DNA of 41,138 nucleotides, from positions 88,060 to 129,197 of the forward strand of contig NZ_JXJW01000002.1 of the NCBI RefSeq assembly GCF_002441695.1. Reading direction: 5' to 3'. This DNA comes from Pseudolactococcus piscium. Lineage in GTDB: Bacteria; Bacillota; Bacilli; Lactobacillales; Streptococcaceae. Positions 23,647 to 41,138 of this stretch are shown one piece after another; within the stretch, counting starts at the first letter, position 1, and each line of letters opens with the position of its first letter. Under the pieces are notes generated by a model. The model was not told the origin of the DNA. It saw nothing but the letters and a program-made list of their open reading frames with translations, and did no database searches. A program made the translations under genes and the position numbers.

Positions 23647-28644
<4,998 letters not shown>

Positions 28645-28655
28645 AGGAGCATATT

Positions 28656-29699
28656 ATGACAAACACTAACTTATTTTTAGATATCCATGTGATTCAAGCT
28701 GTACCACCCGCAAATATCAACCGCGATGATACAGGAAGTCCCAAGACAGCCCAATATGGTGGTGTAACAAGAGCGCGTGTCAGTTCTCAAAGCTGGAAAA
28801 AAGCGATGAGAGATTATTTTAATGCCAATGGTACTGACAGTAATGTTGGGATTAGGTCATTAGAGATTGTAAAATATTTAGCTGATAAAATTCAAGAAAA
28901 AGATAATACTATAAATGATGATGACGCACTAAAAGTAGCGAACGATACGCTTAACAATGCTAAAATATCAACAAAAGATAATCGTTTAAAAGCCCTATTC
29001 TTCTTAGGATCTGCTCAAGTTGAGAAACTAGCACAAGCTGCGATTGATGGCGTAAAAGACAAAAAAGCCTTACAAGAGATTTTAGTAGATAATCCAGCAG
29101 TTGATATCGCTTTATTTGGTAGAATGGTTGCAGATGATCCATCTCTTAACGAAGATGCATCGGCTCAGGTAGCCCATGCCATCTCTACTCATGCAGTCCA
29201 AACAGAATTTGATTTTTTCACTGCGACTGATGATTTGGCAGCAGAAGATAATGCAGGTGCTGGCATGTTAGGTACTATAGAATATAATGCATCAACACTT
29301 TATCGCTATGCAAATGTAGCTGCACATGAACTCCTTAAGCAACTTGATGATAAAACTGCAACAATAAATGCCCTAAAATTATTTGTTGACGCTTTTGTTA
29401 AATCGATGCCAACTGGGAAGATTAATACATTTGCTAACCAAACCTTACCAAGTGCTGTTGTAGTCGTACTTCGCAGTGATAGACCTGTTAATATTGTCAA
29501 TACATTTGAAAATCCTATCAAAGCAAATGGTGGTTATGTTGACAAATCTATTCAACAATTGGAAAAAGGGTTACAGGATGCGGATTGTTTTGTGGCTAAG
29601 CCCTTATCCATGCTGACAATTGGTTTGAAAGATAATAATCAACTTAATTTTGATACTTTGTTAGCACAGTTAGATAGTGATTTAACAGATAATTTGTAA
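28656..29699 (+). CDS. cas7e: Cascade backbone subunit Cas7e (CasC, Cse4)
   Basis: 347 aa. Starts FLDIHVIQAVPPANINRDD and continues with GGVTRARVSSQSWKKAMR, the RRM-fold family signature. Six copies form the filament along the crRNA spacer. The segment near residues 185-205 (DFFTATDDLAAED, then AGAGMLGTIEYNASTLYRY) includes the thumb and the conserved YNASTLYRYA block. AGAGGAG precedes ATG 28656. All family landmarks appear intact and length is normal. Confidence 0.96.
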   Translation: MTNTNLFLDIHVIQAVPPANINRDDTGSPKTAQYGGVTRARVSSQSWKKAMRDYFNANGTDSNVGIRSLEIVKYLADKIQEKDNTINDDDALKVANDTLNNAKISTKDNRLKALFFLGSAQVEKLAQAAIDGVKDKKALQEILVDNPAVDIALFGRMVADDPSLNEDASAQVAHAISTHAVQTEFDFFTATDDLAAEDNAGAGMLGTIEYNASTLYRYANVAAHELLKQLDDKTATINALKLFVDAFVKSMPTGKINTFANQTLPSAVVVVLRSDRPVNIVNTFENPIKANGGYVDKSIQQLEKGLQDADCFVAKPLSMLTIGLKDNNQLNFDTLLAQLDSDLTDNL

Positions 29700-29712
29700 G
29701 TGGGGGATAAGT

Positions 29713-30426
29713 ATGACAACTCTATTATTAAAGTTGGCTGGCCCCTTGCAGTCATATGGTACGGATTCACACTTTGAGACACGACAAACTGGGCGCTATC
29801 CATCTAAAAGTGCTGTAATTGGCATGATTTCAGCCAGTATGGGGTTGAAGCGAGATCAAGATAAAGAAATTCAATCCTTAAATCAATTAGATTTTGCAGT
29901 GAGAGTAGATCAGCCTGGGGAAATTTTACGTGATTTTCATACAGCCCATTCTCTTAAAAAAGATGGCAAAGTCAATCGAACTTATGTGACTAATCGCTAC
30001 TATTTAGAAGATGCGGTATTCGTTGTTGCAATTAGTGGTAGTGAATCTTTAATGCAAGAAGTGTCTAGAGCAATCAAATCACCTTATTTTCAAACATTTA
30101 TGGGTCGTCGTGCCTTACCTTTGACAAGCGATTTCTTTATTGAAGAGGTTGAAGAAAAACCGATTTTAGCATTAACAAATCTAGTATGGCAAGCTGCAAA
30201 ATGGTATCAAAAAAAGAACGCGAACCTATCAAAACTAGATATTTATGCAGATGCTGATTTGCTAAGTACTGGCAGTAGTTTAATGACTAGAGAGCATGTT
30301 GTGTCATTTTCACAACAGAAGAGACAATATGGATTTCGGCCTGTTAAACACACTAGTATTACAGTGAGAAAAGAAGATTTGTTGCTATCACACGATATAT
30401 TTTCTGCTATAGAAGGGAGATCGTGA
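29713..30426 (+). CDS. cas5e: Cascade subunit Cas5e (CasD)
   Basis: 237 aa. The N-terminus LLLKLAGPLQSYGTDSHFE and RYPSKSAVIGMISASMGLKR are the RAMP-family Cas5e signature. It caps the 5' end of the crRNA and holds the repeat-derived handle (here predicted GUGAUCC plus one pyrimidine). GGGGGAT precedes ATG 29713. Its TGA overlaps the first base of the cas6e ATG, so translation is coupled. Confidence 0.95.
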   Translation: MTTLLLKLAGPLQSYGTDSHFETRQTGRYPSKSAVIGMISASMGLKRDQDKEIQSLNQLDFAVRVDQPGEILRDFHTAHSLKKDGKVNRTYVTNRYYLEDAVFVVAISGSESLMQEVSRAIKSPYFQTFMGRRALPLTSDFFIEEVEEKPILALTNLVWQAAKWYQKKNANLSKLDIYADADLLSTGSSLMTREHVVSFSQQKRQYGFRPVKHTSITVRKEDLLLSHDIFSAIEGRS

Positions 30427-31067
30427 TGTATTTATCTCGAGTAGTAATTGATACTAAAAATCGTCAAAAAATGAAAGATTTAACACATGTAGGGGCCTAT
30501 CATGGGTGGGTTGAGAATAGTTTTCCTAATCAAGTACGCGATTCACAAGGCCTCTTTCCCCGTAAACTCTGGCGAATTGATAAACTGAATCAAAATAAAT
30601 ATTTACTTTTAATTAGTGAAGAAAAACCTGACATAAAGAAACTGGAAAAGTATGGCGTCCAAGATACAGGTCAAATAAAAGATTATCAACCGTATATTGA
30701 TAGCTTAAAGTCAGGGGATTATGTTCGATTTAAATTAGTCGCAAATCCAGTCATTTCGAAAAAAGTTTCAGGTGGACGTGGACAAGTGATGCCCCATGTC
30801 ACAATGGCATGGCAAGAGAAATTTTTACTGGATCGCTCAGAGAAGCATGGCTTTAAACTTAATTCAGATGATTTTGCAATCACAGAACATGAATATGTCA
30901 CTTTCAAACATAAAAGTGGTAAAATGCCTAGACTCAGTAAGACAACTTATGAAGGCAATCTAACAATTACTGATAGTAAAAAGTTTAAAGCATTACTAGT
31001 TGGCGGAATGGGTAAGAAAAAAGCGTATGGCTTTGGTATGATGACAGTTATTCCGATTGGAGAATAA
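30426..31067 (+). CDS. cas6e: crRNA endoribonuclease Cas6e (CasE, Cse3)
   Basis: 213 aa from ATG 30426, overlapping the cas5e stop by one base; a GTG one codon earlier is possible. His26 in GAYHGWVE fits the catalytic histidine known for Cas6e/Cse3, and the C-terminal glycine-rich loop GGMGKKKAYGFGMM is the RAMP signature. It cuts the repeat hairpin (CCCGC / GCGGG stem, ACCT loop) on its 3' side, leaving an 8-nt 5' handle, and stays bound to the 3' hairpin in Cascade. Its stop directly abuts the cas1 start. Confidence 0.95.
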   Translation: MYLSRVVIDTKNRQKMKDLTHVGAYHGWVENSFPNQVRDSQGLFPRKLWRIDKLNQNKYLLLISEEKPDIKKLEKYGVQDTGQIKDYQPYIDSLKSGDYVRFKLVANPVISKKVSGGRGQVMPHVTMAWQEKFLLDRSEKHGFKLNSDDFAITEHEYVTFKHKSGKMPRLSKTTYEGNLTITDSKKFKALLVGGMGKKKAYGFGMMTVIPIGE

Positions 31068-32909
<1,842 letters not shown>

Positions 32910-32935
32910 TGCTGAAATACTTGGGATTTTTAAGT
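32910..32935 (+). promoter_or_regulatory. residual leader between cas2 and the CRISPR array
   Basis: Just 26 bp separate the cas2 stop from the first repeat. The stretch is AT-rich and ends TTTTTAAGT. No consensus promoter is seen in it; AATACT at 32916-32921 is a poor -10. The true leader, including any integration signal or promoter, must extend into the 3' end of the cas2-dnaQ gene. Confidence 0.5.
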
Positions 32936-35900
32936 CTTTTACCCGCACCTGCGGGGGTGATCCCACTTTGAACAGTTGTAGTAACAGCAGTCCAAACTTT
33001 TACCCGCACCTGCGGGGGTGATCCTGAACCAATCTGGGCAATCAATAGTAACTTTAGCTTTTACCCGCACCTGCGGGGGTGATCCTAGCGCCCAAACTAT
33101 CATGCGCAACCTCTCGGCCTTTTACCCGCACCTGCGGGGGTGATCCTAAGCGGTAAAATAGTACTATGATGATTGTATACTTTTACCCGCACCTGCGGGG
33201 GTGATCCTGACGTTTGAAGAAGCAATCGATATTATTGAAGCTTTTACCCGCACCTGCGGGGGTGATCCTTAAATTTCTAATTTCATACAAGCAAAATTCT
33301 TCTTTTACCCGCACCTGCGGGGGTGATCCTTCCTGTCCATAATTCGCTAAACCATGTACCTACTTTTACCCGCACCTGCGGGGGTGATCCTTCAATGACT
33401 TCAAAGGACTAATGCAATCTTTCCTTTTACCCGCACCTGCGGGGGTGATCCCATAAGTATCTTGATGATACGGACTATTCTCAGCTTTTACCCGCACCTG
33501 CGGGGGTGATCCCACACATAGTTCTCCGTTTATCCGTTTTATTAACTTTTACCCGCACCTGCGGGGGTGATCCTTTCAATCTGTTTAACAGTTTCTCGTG
33601 TTTCCACTTTTACCCGCACCTGCGGGGGTGATCCCAGAAAAAGACGATGAGGGCCAACGATTGTTGGCTTTTACCCGCACCTGCGGGGGTGATCCCTAGA
33701 TACTAAATTTTATGATGATGTAAAAAGTCTTTTACCCGCACCTGCGGGGGTGATCCCGTTGTTGACGAACAAATACCCCAACAACAAACCTTTTACCCGC
33801 ACCTGCGGGGGTGATCCTAAAATGGATGGCGATTACACAAGTAAAGTTGACTTTTACCCGCACCTGCGGGGGTGATCCTAGTGGACAATTTAGGCGACTA
33901 CTCGCCAGAAGCTTTTACCCGCACCTGCGGGGGTGATCCCATCAGTTCCTGTTCGCTTACTCAAGGTCATTACTTTTACCCGCACCTGCGGGGGTGATCC
34001 TAGCCTGATGTAGCTACTGATTGACCGCCTACACTTTTACCCGCACCTGCGGGGGTGATCCCAGTTTTTCGAATGTCAGCGCTAATTTTTTACACTTTTA
34101 CCCGCACCTGCGGGGGTGATCCTGAAAAAACTCAAAAAATCAGTAGCAGTCTTAGCTTTTACCCGCACCTGCGGGGGTGATCCCTGACCTTTTTTAACCC
34201 AATTTGCTAAGTTTTCCTTTTACCCGCACCTGCGGGGGTGATCCTATCAACAGCTCAACAGCTATTTCTCCACAGATCTTTTACCCGCACCTGCGGGGGT
34301 GATCCTGAAGTTGGCGAGTTCGCAACGGTACGATATTACTTTTACCCGCACCTGCGGGGGTGATCCTTTCCAACGCTATAAATGGGGAATATGAAAATGC
34401 TTTTACCCGCACCTGCGGGGGTGATCCCCTATCAAGTGGGAGGTAAGTTCTGTAGAGGTACTTTTACCCGCACCTGCGGGGGTGATCCTATAAATGCTGG
34501 GACTTAGTTAACTGGTACGTACTTTTACCCGCACCTGCGGGGGTGATCCCAACTCCCGTTCTAGCTAGTTCAGACTCATTACCTTTTACCCGCACCTGCG
34601 GGGGTGATCCTAGCTATTTACTCTCTCCCATTTGACATATTCCCTTTTACCCGCACCTGCGGGGGTGATCCTGAAGCGGATTTCATTCAGATAAACACTG
34701 ACATCTTTTACCCGCACCTGCGGGGGTGATCCCACACTTTTTACAAGCTTTACTACCTAATCGCTCTTTTACCCGCACCTGCGGGGGTGATCCTTTCACT
34801 CGTTATCCTCAACTGGAACAAGCTCACTTTTACCCGCACCTGCGGGGGTGATCCTTGAGGAAAAATTGAAAGGGCGGTATAAAAATGCTTTTACCCGCAC
34901 CTGCGGGGGTGATCCTCAGGTGTCGATTCCCTAAATCTGTTATCGTGACTTTTACCCGCACCTGCGGGGGTGATCCTAAGTCTCAGCTGGTGTTCCGTTG
35001 AATTCTTTACTTTTACCCGCACCTGCGGGGGTGATCCTAATCGTGACAGCGTCTACACGCAGAACAATATCACTTTTACCCGCACCTGCGGGGGTGATCC
35101 CTTTGAAGATATAGCAGACACTAGCACAGGTATCTTTTACCCGCACCTGCGGGGGTGATCCTCGCAAGGTGTTTCAAGGGTTGATACGTCAAGTCTTTTA
35201 CCCGCACCTGCGGGGGTGATCCTATCTTAACGAAAAAACTGGAAGAAGTTTCAGACTTTTACCCGCACCTGCGGGGGTGATCCTGACATTTGAAGAAGCA
35301 ATTGAAATAATTGAAGCTTTTACCCGCACCTGCGGGGGTGATCCTAAATCTTTTGTTCTGCAATAGTCGCATCAAACCTTTTACCCGCACCTGCGGGGGT
35401 GATCCTAGCCTTAGATAATTTAAGAAACTTTTGTTGACCTTTTACCCGCACCTGCGGGGGTGATCCCGGCATTACCCGCTTGTCACAATATAACCATACC
35501 TTTTACCCGCACCTGCGGGGGTGATCCTGCTGAAACAACTGCTATGATAAGAGTAACTATCTTTTACCCGCACCTGCGGGGGTGATCCTCAGCCATTTTT
35601 CAAAAGCTTCTAGTTTCTCTACTTTTACCCGCACCTGCGGGGGTGATCCCCGTTTATCGGCCATTTACACCCCCAAACACCACTTTTACCCGCACCTGCG
35701 GGGGTGATCCTGCAGCGGCCGTTAAATCATGCAACTTAGATAACTTTTACCCGCACCTGCGGGGGTGATCCCGAATACAGCGCAATTGTGTTTAACTTAC
35801 CTCACTTTTACCCGCACCTGCGGGGGTGATCCTACCAATCAAAGCACCCTTTTTAACCCAGTTTGCTTTTACCCGCACCTGCGGGGGTGATCCTAAAGCG

Positions 35901-37540
35901 CTTCTGCTTTGCTATCGAACTTTATGCTTTTACCCGCACCTGCGGGGGTGATCCTATATTCAATAGGTTTAGATATCGAGAATAAAACTTTTACCCGCAC
36001 CTGCGGGGGTGATCCCAGGAGCTAACCTCTCTCGCTGTCTGCGTTTGCCTTTTACCCGCACCTGCGGGGGTGATCCTGGAATAGACCCGATTGGCTATTA
36101 CAATGGGGCCTTTTACCCGCACCTGCGGGGGTGATCCTTAAGATAATCGCACCAATTGCAATTCCGATACCTTTTACCCGCACCTGCGGGGGTGATCCTG
36201 AAAAAAATCACAATTTTAGGAATCGTTTTATCTTTTACCCGCACCTGCGGGGGTGATCCTACAGATGCGATATTCTTCAAAAACGGAGTCGCCTTTTACC
36301 CGCACCTGCGGGGGTGATCCTCGCTATGGTATGCAGATCACAGTCGCTACTAACTTTTACCCGCACCTGCGGGGGTGATCCTTAGCAAACCCAACATTCA
36401 CAGAGGTTGATTTTCTTTTACCCGCACCTGCGGGGGTGATCCTAAAATAGCCACTGATAATCTTCTTATCAGTAGCTTTTACCCGCACCTGCGGGGGTGA
36501 TCCTTCTTGACGGGTCTAAAGTGTTACAGTCTGATGCTTTTACCCGCACCTGCGGGGGTGATCCTACCCTCTAGTCATATATCGCGCATAACTCACACTT
36601 TTACCCGCACCTGCGGGGGTGATCCCGGAAGAGAATCATCATTCAAATCCATTGGCGACTTTTACCCGCACCTGCGGGGGTGATCCTATACAGGACTTCA
36701 TTTCCATGGAAGGTAAGTTCTTTTACCCGCACCTGCGGGGGTGATCCTTGATATCAAAAGAACACACCGTAAACGTGAACCTTTTACCCGCACCTGCGGG
36801 GGTGATCCTGTCTCCTACTGCAAAACTGCTTTATTTTTATCCTTTTACCCGCACCTGCGGGGGTGATCCTATCCATGAATTATCTCCTTAAAACGGAAGA
36901 GACTTTTACCCGCACCTGCGGGGGTGATCCTGGCTACATGTATTTTTCAAACTTGGATAATTGCTTTTACCCGCACCTGCGGGGGTGATCCCCCCCAAAC
37001 ATCACGATAGCCGTCTGGCTTTTCCTTTTACCCGCACCTGCGGGGGTGATCCGGTGTTTCTATCAATTTTAGTGATTGAACTAAACTTTTACCCGCACCT
37101 GCGGGGGTGATCCTGTTTTACTTTTATTCATTCTTCCGCCTCATGACTTTTACCCGCACCTGCGGGGGTGATCCTATTCAGCAATCCAGAAAACTTTACA
37201 ATTTCAGCTTTTACCCGCACCTGCGGGGGTGATCCTAGTTAATTAAAACTGCTTACGAAAATTATCAACTTTTACCCGCACCTGCGGGGGTGATCCTAAC
37301 CGATATCGGCAAGAAGTATTTGATCATCACTTTTACCCGCACCTGCGGGGGTGATCCTACTTTTTATCGTCTGCCAATTCAACCCCCAAACTTTTACCCG
37401 CACCTGCGGGGGTGATCCTTCGGAACTGGCGTGACATTATAGTCAGGATACCTTTTACCCGCACCTGCGGGGGTGATCCTACCGCTTCATTAACTCGCTC
37501 ATCGGCTGTTTTCTTTTACCCGCACCTGCGGGGGTGATCC

Positions 37541-37634
37541 TCGCTGACTTCGATAAGCAAGCATACATTGAGCCTTTTACCCGCACCTGCGGGGGTGATC
37601 CTCGCTGACTTCGATAAGCAAGCATACATTGAGC
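37541..37634 (+). repeat. tandem duplicate spacer (numbers 76 and 77)
   Basis: The 33-nt spacer beginning TCGCTGACTTCG occurs twice in a row (37541-37573 and 37602-37634). This is a simple one-unit duplication within the array. Confidence 0.97.
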
Positions 37635-40104
37635 CTTTTACCCGCACCTGCGGGGGTGATCCCTTATCCACTTGAAAAGCCAGACGGCTATCGTGCTTTT
37701 ACCCGCACCTGCGGGGGTGATCCTGCCACTTAAGTTTTCACCGTATTGAACCACATCTTTTACCCGCACCTGCGGGGGTGATCCTCGTTTCCTTTCTATT
37801 CGGTCATCCGAACTTTACTTTTACCCGCACCTGCGGGGGTGATCCTTCATGCCCGAAAGCATCAAGTAAAGCCTGCGGCTTTTACCCGCACCTGCGGGGG
37901 TGATCCTAGATGACATAGAAATTTACTCGATCGGACTTGCTTTTACCCGCACCTGCGGGGGTGATCCTAGCCTTTTTATTTCAGACTCAGCCTGTTCTAT
38001 CTTTTACCCGCACCTGCGGGGGTGATCCTCCAGACAAACGTCCGACAAACGTACACCAGAGCTTTTACCCGCACCTGCGGGGGTGATCCTCATCAAGCGT
38101 ATACCCTTCGGAAAACCTATACCTTTTACCCGCACCTGCGGGGGTGATCCTGAACTTGACGGAAAATACGACTCAAGTCGTAACTTTTACCCGCACCTGC
38201 GGGGGTGATCCTAAAATCTTATGAAGAAGCTGGAAATTACTTGACTTTTACCCGCACCTGCGGGGGTGATCCTGATTGAATTTGATAACGTACGTGAAGC
38301 TTTAGCTTTTACCCGCACCTGCGGGGGTGATCCTAGCGTATAGATTTTGAAAACCTAAATTACGACCTTTTACCCGCACCTGCGGGGGTGATCCCCAGAT
38401 TGAAAAATTTCCATGAGTTAAATTATTCTTTTACCCGCACCTGCGGGGGTGATCCCTTCACGCTGTAGGCTCTCATTTGCACGCTGTAGCTTTTACCCGC
38501 ACCTGCGGGGGTGATCCTATAGACAGCTTGCGAGATGAAAGAGATTCTATCTTTTACCCGCACCTGCGGGGGTGATCCCATACAGTCATAAAGGTTTCTA
38601 AAGAAACAAACCTTTTACCCGCACCTGCGGGGGTGATCCTGTCAAGTGTTTTCTCCAATTATTTTAAATAATCTTTTACCCGCACCTGCGGGGGTGATCC
38701 TTCATTTTGGTTAAAATAAACATTAGATACCGTCTTTTACCCGCACCTGCGGGGGTGATCCTTTCAAAGGCATTAAAGACAAGCGGGTATTACCCTTTTA
38801 CCCGCACCTGCGGGGGTGATCCTAAATACAAGACAGAAAAATTCATTTCAGAAAGCTTTTACCCGCACCTGCGGGGGTGATCCTTAGTTGTTCTAAAGCT
38901 TCACGTACGTTGTCAACTTTTACCCGCACCTGCGGGGGTGATCCCGTCTACCTATTTCCCAAATCAAGTAATTTCCACTTTTACCCGCACCTGCGGGGGT
39001 GATCCTACACCTGTAATACCGCTCCAAGCATTAGATGCCTTTTACCCGCACCTGCGGGGGTGATCCTGAAGAAGCAAGTCAACGTGAGCAAGAAGAATAC
39101 TTTTACCCGCACCTGCGGGGGTGATCCCCTAGTGCCGTGTTAGCATCGGTCAGTTGATTGCTTTTACCCGCACCTGCGGGGGTGATCCTTTCAATCAAGA
39201 TTGAATCTAGTAACTCCGCTTCTTTTACCCGCACCTGCGGGGGTGATCCTATTTATATAGGGTGGATGGTAGGGAAAAGAAACTTTTACCCGCACCTGCG
39301 GGGGTGATCCTTTGACATATAAAGAATTTTGCTTATATGAAATCTTTTACCCGCACCTGCGGGGGTGATCCTGACATAGTAAAGCCGTTTGTTGCATTTG
39401 CTACCTTTTACCCGCACCTGCGGGGGTGATCCCAGGTGATAGCTTTCTATCGTTTTCAAACTCGATCTTTTACCCGCACCTGCGGGGGTGATCCTGGGTT
39501 GAGACCTCGTTGTCTTGCAATTTCCAACTTTTACCCGCACCTGCGGGGGTGATCCCAATCCAGACTATGACAGACCAGTGATAAGAGTCTTTTACCCGCA
39601 CCTGCGGGGGTGATCCTGACCAAAAAGGTGCGCTATACGAAGAATTGATCTTTTACCCGCACCTGCGGGGGTGATCCTATTTTTAATGCTGGGGCTAGTT
39701 TTAAAAGCAGCTTTTACCCGCACCTGCGGGGGTGATCCCTTAACCGCATCCCAATCCATGTCCATCGTCTTCTTTTACCCGCACCTGCGGGGGTGATCCT
39801 CAGCATCGAAAATCGCAGTGCTATACAGGCAACTTTTACCCGCACCTGCGGGGGTGATCCTAATTTGATAAAAAGCAAGTTGAAAAAGATTACCTTTTAC
39901 CCGCACCTGCGGGGGTGATCCTCTTTATCTGCTCACGCTTCACTTTGTTAGTCTCTTTTACCCGCACCTGCGGGGGTGATCCTGTTATTGTTGGCTTTTT
40001 ACCCTTTCCGTTGCTCTTTTACCCGCACCTGCGGGGGTGATCCCAGCTGAACTAGTATACTTATAACCTGTTTGCCCTTTTACCCGCACCTGCGGGGGTG
40101 ATCC

Positions 40105-41113
40105 TTATGCTGGTAAGCTAGGCGAAACTTACGTATTCTTTTACCCGCACCTGCGGGGGTGATCCCTACAAAACCACGGACTGATAAATATGTACCAACT
40201 TTTACCCGCACCTGCGGGGGTGATCCTAACAAAAGGTCAACGGATTAAAATGACCACAACTTTTACCCGCACCTGCGGGGGTGATCCTTATGCTGGTAAG
40301 CTAGGCGAAACTTACGTATTCTTTTACCCGCACCTGCGGGGGTGATCCTATTCGTCATTTATATCAGTATTTATCTGGATCCTTTTACCCGCACCTGCGG
40401 GGGTGATCCTAACAAAAGGTCAACGGATTAAAATGACCACAACTTTTACCCGCACCTGCGGGGGTGATCCTGGAAAATTTAGTAAACAAAGTACAAGAAA
40501 TTCCTTTTACCCGCACCTGCGGGGGTGATCCTTCAGTACTGCACTTGCAGTCTTCGACGGCATCCTTTTACCCGCACCTGCGGGGGTGATCCTGACAGTG
40601 ATTTTTGCAAAGTTTTTTTTGATTCCTTTTACCCGCACCTGCGGGGGTGATCCTGGAAAATTTAGTAAACAAAGTACAAGAAATTCCTTTTACCCGCACC
40701 TGCGGGGGTGATCCTAAATACTTGACTAACACGGGAAACCGTGTTATCTTTTACCCGCACCTGCGGGGGTGATCCTGACAGTGATTTTTGCAAAGTTTTT
40801 TTTGATTCCTTTTACCCGCACCTGCGGGGGTGATCCTATCATAAATGACAGGAATCTAGGAACGGTCCACTTTTACCCGCACCTGCGGGGGTGATCCTAT
40901 CTTAAATTCATAATCGCCGATATTATTTAACTTTTACCCGCACCTGCGGGGGTGATCCTCAAAGCAGAAATTGGCGATGTCGTAGAAGTGTCTTTTACCC
41001 GCACCTGCGGGGGTGATCCTATCATAAATGACAGGAATCTAGGAACGGTCCACTTTTACCCGCACCTGCGGGGGTGATCCTAACACGATGTCAAGCTATG
41101 ATACTACAGTATA
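40105..41113 (+). repeat. interleaved duplicated spacers at the right end of the array
   Basis: Spacers 118-134 follow the order A B C A D C, E F G E H G, I J K I L. Identical pairs are A 40105/40288, C 40227/40410, E 40471/40654, G 40593/40776 and I 40837/41020, all exactly 183 bp (three units) apart. B, D, F, H, J and L occur once. K (40959-40991) has no partner in the window. Confidence 0.97.
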
Positions 41114-41138
41114 CTTTTACCCGCACCTGCGGGGGTGA

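What the first reader, a model, noticed from the sequence alone, without database searches (positions are those of the whole stretch)
40105..41113. Regular interleaved spacer duplication with a testable prediction
Seen: three successive six-unit blocks have the form X u Y X v Y, in which the outer spacers of a triplet are repeated and the middle one differs (ABC-ADC, EFG-EHG, IJK-IL...). A simple unequal crossover would copy whole runs, including the middle spacer, so the threefold recurrence of the same pattern is hard to explain that way. It could reflect an unknown array rearrangement, or an assembly artefact that interleaves two array versions (ABC EFG IJK and ADC EHG ILK). It predicts that the next spacer beyond the window is K (starts TCAAAGCAGAAATTGG).
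Basis: partly seen in the sequence, partly recalled or inferred. Interest (0 to 1): 0.75.

Follow-up and report, generated by a model that had tools for sequence, protein, structure and literature searches.

The report
CRISPR spacer pattern, probably misassembly
In a draft genome of a lactic acid bacterium, a bacterial immune-memory array appears to repeat its entries in a strange interleaved order, but that order most likely comes from how short sequencing pieces were joined and not from a new biological process.

Summary
A type I-E CRISPR array (28-nt repeat, 61-nt period) reads A B C A D C E F G E H G I J K I L at window 40105-41113, with exact copies. The array continues to C12:135666. Just past the window come the only N of the 197.7-kb contig, a truncated S1 (the array's first spacer), then L M S1; a further complete X u Y X v Y block follows. 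The next spacer is not K. The pattern is absent from 54 arrays (1,403 spacers) of related systems, and three blocks arose in 0 and 1 of 5,000 simulations of duplication plus deletion. Contig ends of this draft share at most 29 nt, exactly 29 and flush in 17 of 42 sharing pairs. A graph of that word size shatters this array into 507 pieces, so spacer order rests on a later threading step. Two array versions differing in middle spacers give exactly such three-spacer pieces; merged through the repeat at words 85-89 they rebuild blocks 1 and 2 letter for letter. Verdict: most likely an assembly artefact (about 0.75 over its variants). No reads were available.

The parts
23659..32909 (+). type I-E cas operon: cas3, cse1/cas8e, cse2, cas7, cas5, cas6e, cas1e, and cas2e fused to a DnaQ/DEDDh-type exonuclease
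   Evidence: ORFs; NCBIfam (Cse1, Cse2, Cas7, Cas5, Cas6, Cas1e, Cas2e and the Cas3 domain models pass their cut-offs; the full-length Cas3 model PRK09694 does not, 345.5 of 569 bits)
32910..32935 (+). 26 nt between cas2-dnaQ and the first repeat (leader side)
   Evidence: window 32876-32935 differs at 1 of 60 positions from the same place in the congener G006
32936..41138 (+). CRISPR array, window part; it continues past the window to C12:135666 (239 exact repeats, one truncated repeat at the N, one degenerate last repeat)
40105..40442 (+). block 1, spacers A B C A D C
40471..40808 (+). block 2, spacers E F G E H G
40837..41113 (+). incomplete block 3, spacers I J K I L
41114..41138 (+). first 25 nt of a repeat; the next base of the contig (C12:129198) is the only N on C12
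40044..40076 (+). spacer 116, just before A; the same spacer recurs at unit 153, beyond the window
32964..32996 (+). spacer S1 (unit 1); recurs whole at unit 137 and truncated right after the N

Best explanation
An ordinary type I-E CRISPR array whose spacer order around window 40077-41138 and beyond is an assembly artefact. The draft was built on a graph with a 29-nt overlap, too short to link spacers across a 28-nt repeat, so a later step (reads, pairs or scaffolding) set their order. Where the data held two alternative triplets with the same outer spacers (X u Y and X v Y), both were placed one after the other and merged through the identical repeat, giving X u Y X v Y. Shown: the pattern, the 29-nt overlaps, the N, the shattering at that word size, and that serial merging of such pieces rebuilds blocks 1 and 2. 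Inferred: that the junctions C-A, G-E, K-I and 135-133 do not exist in the cell, and that two array versions (two clones, or two places in one array) were in the sample.
For: Contig ends: of 42 pairs of ends sharing 18 nt or more (80 informative ends of 40 contigs, of 74 contigs), 17 share exactly 29 nt flush with both ends and none shares more. At word 29 the deposited array falls into 507 unitigs, none longer than 85 nt apart from the two with flanks; 168 of 223 distinct spacers start with T, so even repeat plus one base is mostly shared. The only N of C12 lies in the anomalous stretch, and the 87 nt before it recur 117 nt further on. The sequence after the N resumes exactly at the base that separates S1 from the four other spacers beginning CAC. 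Two versions with different middle spacers give pieces ABC, ADC, EFG, EHG at words 63-93; at words 85, 87, 88 and 89 their ends overlap by 17-26 nt and merging gives the observed letters. No such block in 54 related arrays; duplication plus deletion rarely makes it.
Against: No reads were seen, and the assembler is unknown. In one search merging did not give the observed sequence at words 62-83, 91 or 93, and 85-89 is not the graph's 29, so reads of about that length must be assumed to supply the context. Only blocks 1 and 2 were modelled. The sequence before the N stops 30 nt, not 29, past the point where L becomes identical to spacer 4. C12 has no other close duplication outside the array, apart from one 32-nt repeat at a lag of 2,821 nt, so no second misassembly of this kind was found on it. 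Plain tandem duplications occur in this array and in other arrays. Two versions that differ at single middle spacers are themselves unusual.
Confidence: 0.6

Rival explanations
1. The order is real. Repeat-mediated slippage or unequal crossover made three-unit tandem loops (ABC, EFG, IJK, LMS1, 133-134-135), and exchange with a second array version left different middle spacers in the two passes of three of them.
For: Array duplications are real in general: SpacerPlacer lists 805 of 24,090 spacers as duplication candidates, 695 of them simple duplications (PMC11472070, passages). This array also has plain tandem duplications (76 76, 178 179 178 179, 182 183 182 183), and exact duplicates occur in 16 of 54 related arrays. 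All five loops have the same length, three units, which is more orderly than careless joining would be expected to give.
Against: No such block in 54 related arrays. Duplication plus deletion gave three blocks in 0 and 1 of 5,000 runs, but exchange between versions was not simulated. It needs several independent events at neighbouring places, exactly where the draft has its only N on C12.
Confidence: 0.18
2. Artefact of another kind: one array version only, scrambled by a gap-filling or read-extension step that lost memory at the 28-nt repeat and visited some spacers twice.
For: The graph word carries no linkage through the repeat, and a single N is left in the stretch.
Against: A memory-less walk should give loops of varied length; the five loops here are all three units.
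Confidence: 0.15
3. Pairs X Y were duplicated in tandem (XYXY, as 178 179 178 179 in this array), and new spacers were then inserted internally behind X in each copy (ectopic acquisition).
For: XYXY exists twice in the same array; ectopic integration is documented in other systems (PMC8047081, passages).
Against: It needs an insertion behind X in both copies at three places. By eye the 3' ends of the X spacers share no motif with the leader end; no formal motif search was run.
Confidence: 0.03

Closest known systems
Type I-E CRISPR-Cas with a Cas2-DnaQ fusion (for example the Lactococcus plantarum DSM 20686 locus)
   Same: Same repeat sequence, array directly after cas2-dnaQ, 72% identity in the Cas2-DnaQ protein
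   Different: No shared spacer; its 131 spacers hold one spacer five times in a row and no X u Y X v Y block
Tandem spacer duplication by repeat slippage or unequal crossover
   Same: Identical spacers a few units apart; seen in this array as 76 76, 178 179 178 179, 182 183 182 183
   Different: A simple duplication copies the middle spacer too; here the middle spacer differs
Misassembly of short-read contigs at identical repeats
   Same: Repeat no longer than the graph overlap, a leftover N, and neighbouring pieces that look as if they should overlap
   Different: The loops are unusually regular, and no reads were available to confirm it

Membership tests
Type I-E CRISPR-Cas | cas3, cse1, cse2, cas7, cas5, cas6e, cas1e, cas2e in one operon | tested here: met
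   (NCBIfam) on the eight ORFs; the full-length Cas3 model stays below its cut-off while its helicase and HD domain models pass
Type I-E CRISPR-Cas | array of about 28-nt repeats with about 33-nt spacers beside the operon | tested here: met
Type I-E CRISPR-Cas | active acquisition and interference | not testable with these tools
   needs experiments
Simple tandem spacer duplication | whole run of spacers copied, middle spacer included | tested here: not met
   middle spacers differ in all three complete blocks
Assembly artefact at identical repeats | graph overlap too short to carry linkage through the repeat | tested here: met
   17 of 42 sharing end pairs share exactly 29 nt, none more; 507 unitigs at word 29
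Assembly artefact at identical repeats | pieces X u Y and X v Y merge through the repeat into the observed DNA | tested here: inconclusive
   true for blocks 1 and 2 at words 85, 87, 88, 89; false at 62-83, 91 and 93; the I-L-S1 stretch and the block beyond the window were not modelled
Assembly artefact at identical repeats | suspect junctions absent from the reads | not testable with these tools
   no reads held

The most novel reading that the evidence does not exclude
The array really carries five loops of exactly three units within about 30 units, made by a recurrent repeat-mediated process that copies a triplet and exchanges its middle spacer with a second version of the array, so that alternative spacers are kept side by side between the same neighbours.
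Probability: 0.12. Interest if true: 0.6.

Novelty: not a real feature. Interest (0 to 1): 0.17.

Why it matters
If the order were real, it would show a kind of array recombination that slippage and leader-end acquisition do not explain. As it most likely is an artefact, its value is a caution: the length shared by contig ends shows when a draft's graph is too short to span a CRISPR repeat, and spacer order and duplications in such drafts should not be read as infection history.

Tried and rejected
Simple unequal crossover: rejected for these blocks because the middle spacers differ, and simulation rarely gives the pattern. Wide target-site duplication during Cas1-Cas2 integration: worked out on paper only; it would give X Y n X Y or X n X Y, not X u Y X v Y. 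A graph word of 87, suggested by the 87-nt match at the N, was dropped when contig ends gave 29. Phage origin of the spacers: no match of the window part of the array in the phage collection in near mode; distant mode was run only on the part beyond the window, where 87 records matched, among them staphylococcal phages whose DNA polymerase gene matches one spacer at about 91-94%; not followed. Viral contigs were not scanned, because protospacers would not decide the order. Relatedness of spacers within the window blocks: no spacer from A to L shares 13 nt or more with another distinct spacer on either strand. Naming the strain: not achieved; Lactococcus rests on the named relatives and on G007, whose contig length and spacers equal L. 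plantarum DSM 20686. Assemblers were thought about from recall only and none is claimed. A CRISPR-bearing record in the phage collection (MT835722.1) had 20 distinct entries and no such block. Papers: searches were seen as listings; passages only were read of PMC11472070, PMC8047081, PMC10443329 and PMC10457644. A search for all of 'CRISPR', 'spacer', 'interleaved', 'duplicated spacers', 'array' found 0 papers; this is one narrow search, not proof of absence.

Full report
What is there. The window is C12:88060-129197 of an unnamed draft of 2,405,003 bases in 74 contigs, of the genus Lactococcus judging from named relatives. Window 23659-32909 encodes a type I-E operon that ends in cas1 and a cas2 fused to a DnaQ-type exonuclease. 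Twenty-six nucleotides further the array begins. It holds 239 exact copies of CTTTTACCCGCACCTGCGGGGGTGATCC, one truncated copy at an N, and a degenerate last copy ending at C12:135666, which puts the leader at the left. Whole-genome counts of the repeat (240 with up to 3 mismatches; 239 exact to a shorter pattern) equal those on C12, so no second array is present.

The observation. Spacers at 40105-41113 read A B C A D C E F G E H G I J K I L with exact copies. Just past the window end the contig has its only N. Then follow S1 from its 4th base (S1 is the first spacer of the whole array), L, M, S1, 131, 132 and a further complete block 133 134 135 133 136 135. The predicted K does not follow. 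The scaffold holds three complete X u Y X v Y blocks. Read as a graph, the stretch has five loops of three units: ABC, EFG, IJK, LMS1 (if one M is lost at the N, which is an inference) and 133-134-135. Spacer 116, just before A, recurs 36 units later in the numbering.

Chance and controls. Of 20,000 shuffles of the same units, 1 gave one block and none gave more. Random tandem block duplication plus deletion gave three blocks in 0 of 5,000 runs (14 of each) and in 1 of 5,000 (40 and 80). In 54 arrays with 1,403 spacers at 53 of 65 loci with a related Cas2-DnaQ, no block was seen; 12 loci gave no array by my finder, and long arrays can be cut by the 10-kb flank. Sixteen of these 54 arrays hold some exact duplicate. 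The congener G006, whose array lies on a 2.27-Mb contig and whose leader differs at 1 of 60 positions, has 64 spacers with one doubled; L. plantarum has 131 spacers with one spacer five times in a row. Neither shares a spacer with this array.

Forensics of the draft. I compared the ends of 41 of the 74 contigs (82 ends; the two of C40 are masked). Of 42 pairs of ends that share at least 18 nt within their last 80, 17 share exactly 29 nt flush with both ends and none shares more. That is what a graph assembly with a 29-nt overlap leaves. For example, four contigs stop 28-29 nt into one shared sequence. Such a graph cannot carry linkage through a 28-nt repeat when 168 of 223 distinct spacers begin with T. 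At word 29 the deposited array breaks into 507 unitigs, the longest without flank being 85 nt. The order of the units must come from a later, read- or pair-based step. At the N, the right-hand sequence resumes exactly where S1 becomes different from the four other spacers beginning CAC. The left-hand sequence stops 30 nt, one more than 29, past the point where the end of L becomes identical to spacer 4. The 87 nt before the N recur 117 nt further on, as if the two sides should have overlapped at L.

Model. Cut at the back-joins, the stretch falls into pieces that would overlap their neighbours by three units but for the middle spacer..116 A B C | A D C E F G | E H G I J K | I L.. | (S1) L M S1 131 132 133 134 135 | 133 136 135 137... 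In a mixture of two versions that differ only in the middle spacers, the graph branches hold ABC, ADC, EFG and EHG at all words tried from 63 to 93. At words 85, 87, 88 and 89 their ends overlap by 17-26 nt of repeat, and merging them in series gives the observed letters. At 62-83, 91 and 93 it does not. Only blocks 1 and 2 were modelled. This shows possibility, not proof: it needs contexts of 85-89 nt, which reads could supply but the 29-nt graph could not.

Against this reading. I had no reads and do not know the assembler. Plain tandem duplications are present here (76 76, 178 179 178 179, 182 183 182 183). Uniform three-unit loops are more regular than careless joining would be expected to give. 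Two versions differing at single middle spacers are not a usual population pattern. Outside the array C12 has just one close direct repeat (32 nt, lag 2,821 nt), so no second case of serial placement was found there. I therefore keep about 0.2 for a real order in some form.

Verdict. An ordinary type I-E array with an unreliable spacer order. I give 0.6 to serially placed versions, 0.15 to scrambling of one version by gap filling, 0.18 to a real rearrangement and 0.03 to pair duplication with internal acquisition.

Noticed in passing
window 38184-38305 (units 87, 88) and 38856-38977 (units 98, 99): Spacers of units 88 and 98 share 19 nt, and those of units 87 and 99 share 14 nt, on opposite strands, in nested order; they probably come from overlapping targets on both strands of one element.
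   Followed up: no
window 36964-37024 (unit 67) and 37635-37695 (unit 78): Spacers of units 67 and 78 share 22 nt on opposite strands.
   Followed up: no
window 36537-36597 (unit 60) and C12:129595 (unit 141): Two spacers differ at one base: a second acquisition from a variant target, or a mutated copy.
   Followed up: no
C12:132463-132706 and C12:132830-133073 (L009): Two plain pair duplications, 178 179 178 179 and 182 183 182 183, stand close together in the older part of the array.
   Followed up: partly
window 32964-32996 (unit 1) and C12:129351 (unit 137): The leader-end spacer S1 also occurs deep in the array; interleaved with the two copies of spacer 116 it allows two orders of the segments between them if the order is not phased by long reads (the second order is my inference).
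   Followed up: partly
G000 contig ends C12, C13, C19, C56: Four contigs end in the same sequence of 28-29 nt, probably the end of one repeated mobile element.
   Followed up: partly
L194 (MT835722.1): A record labelled Bacteriophage sp. from human faeces carries a CRISPR array of 61-nt period with a related repeat.
   Followed up: partly
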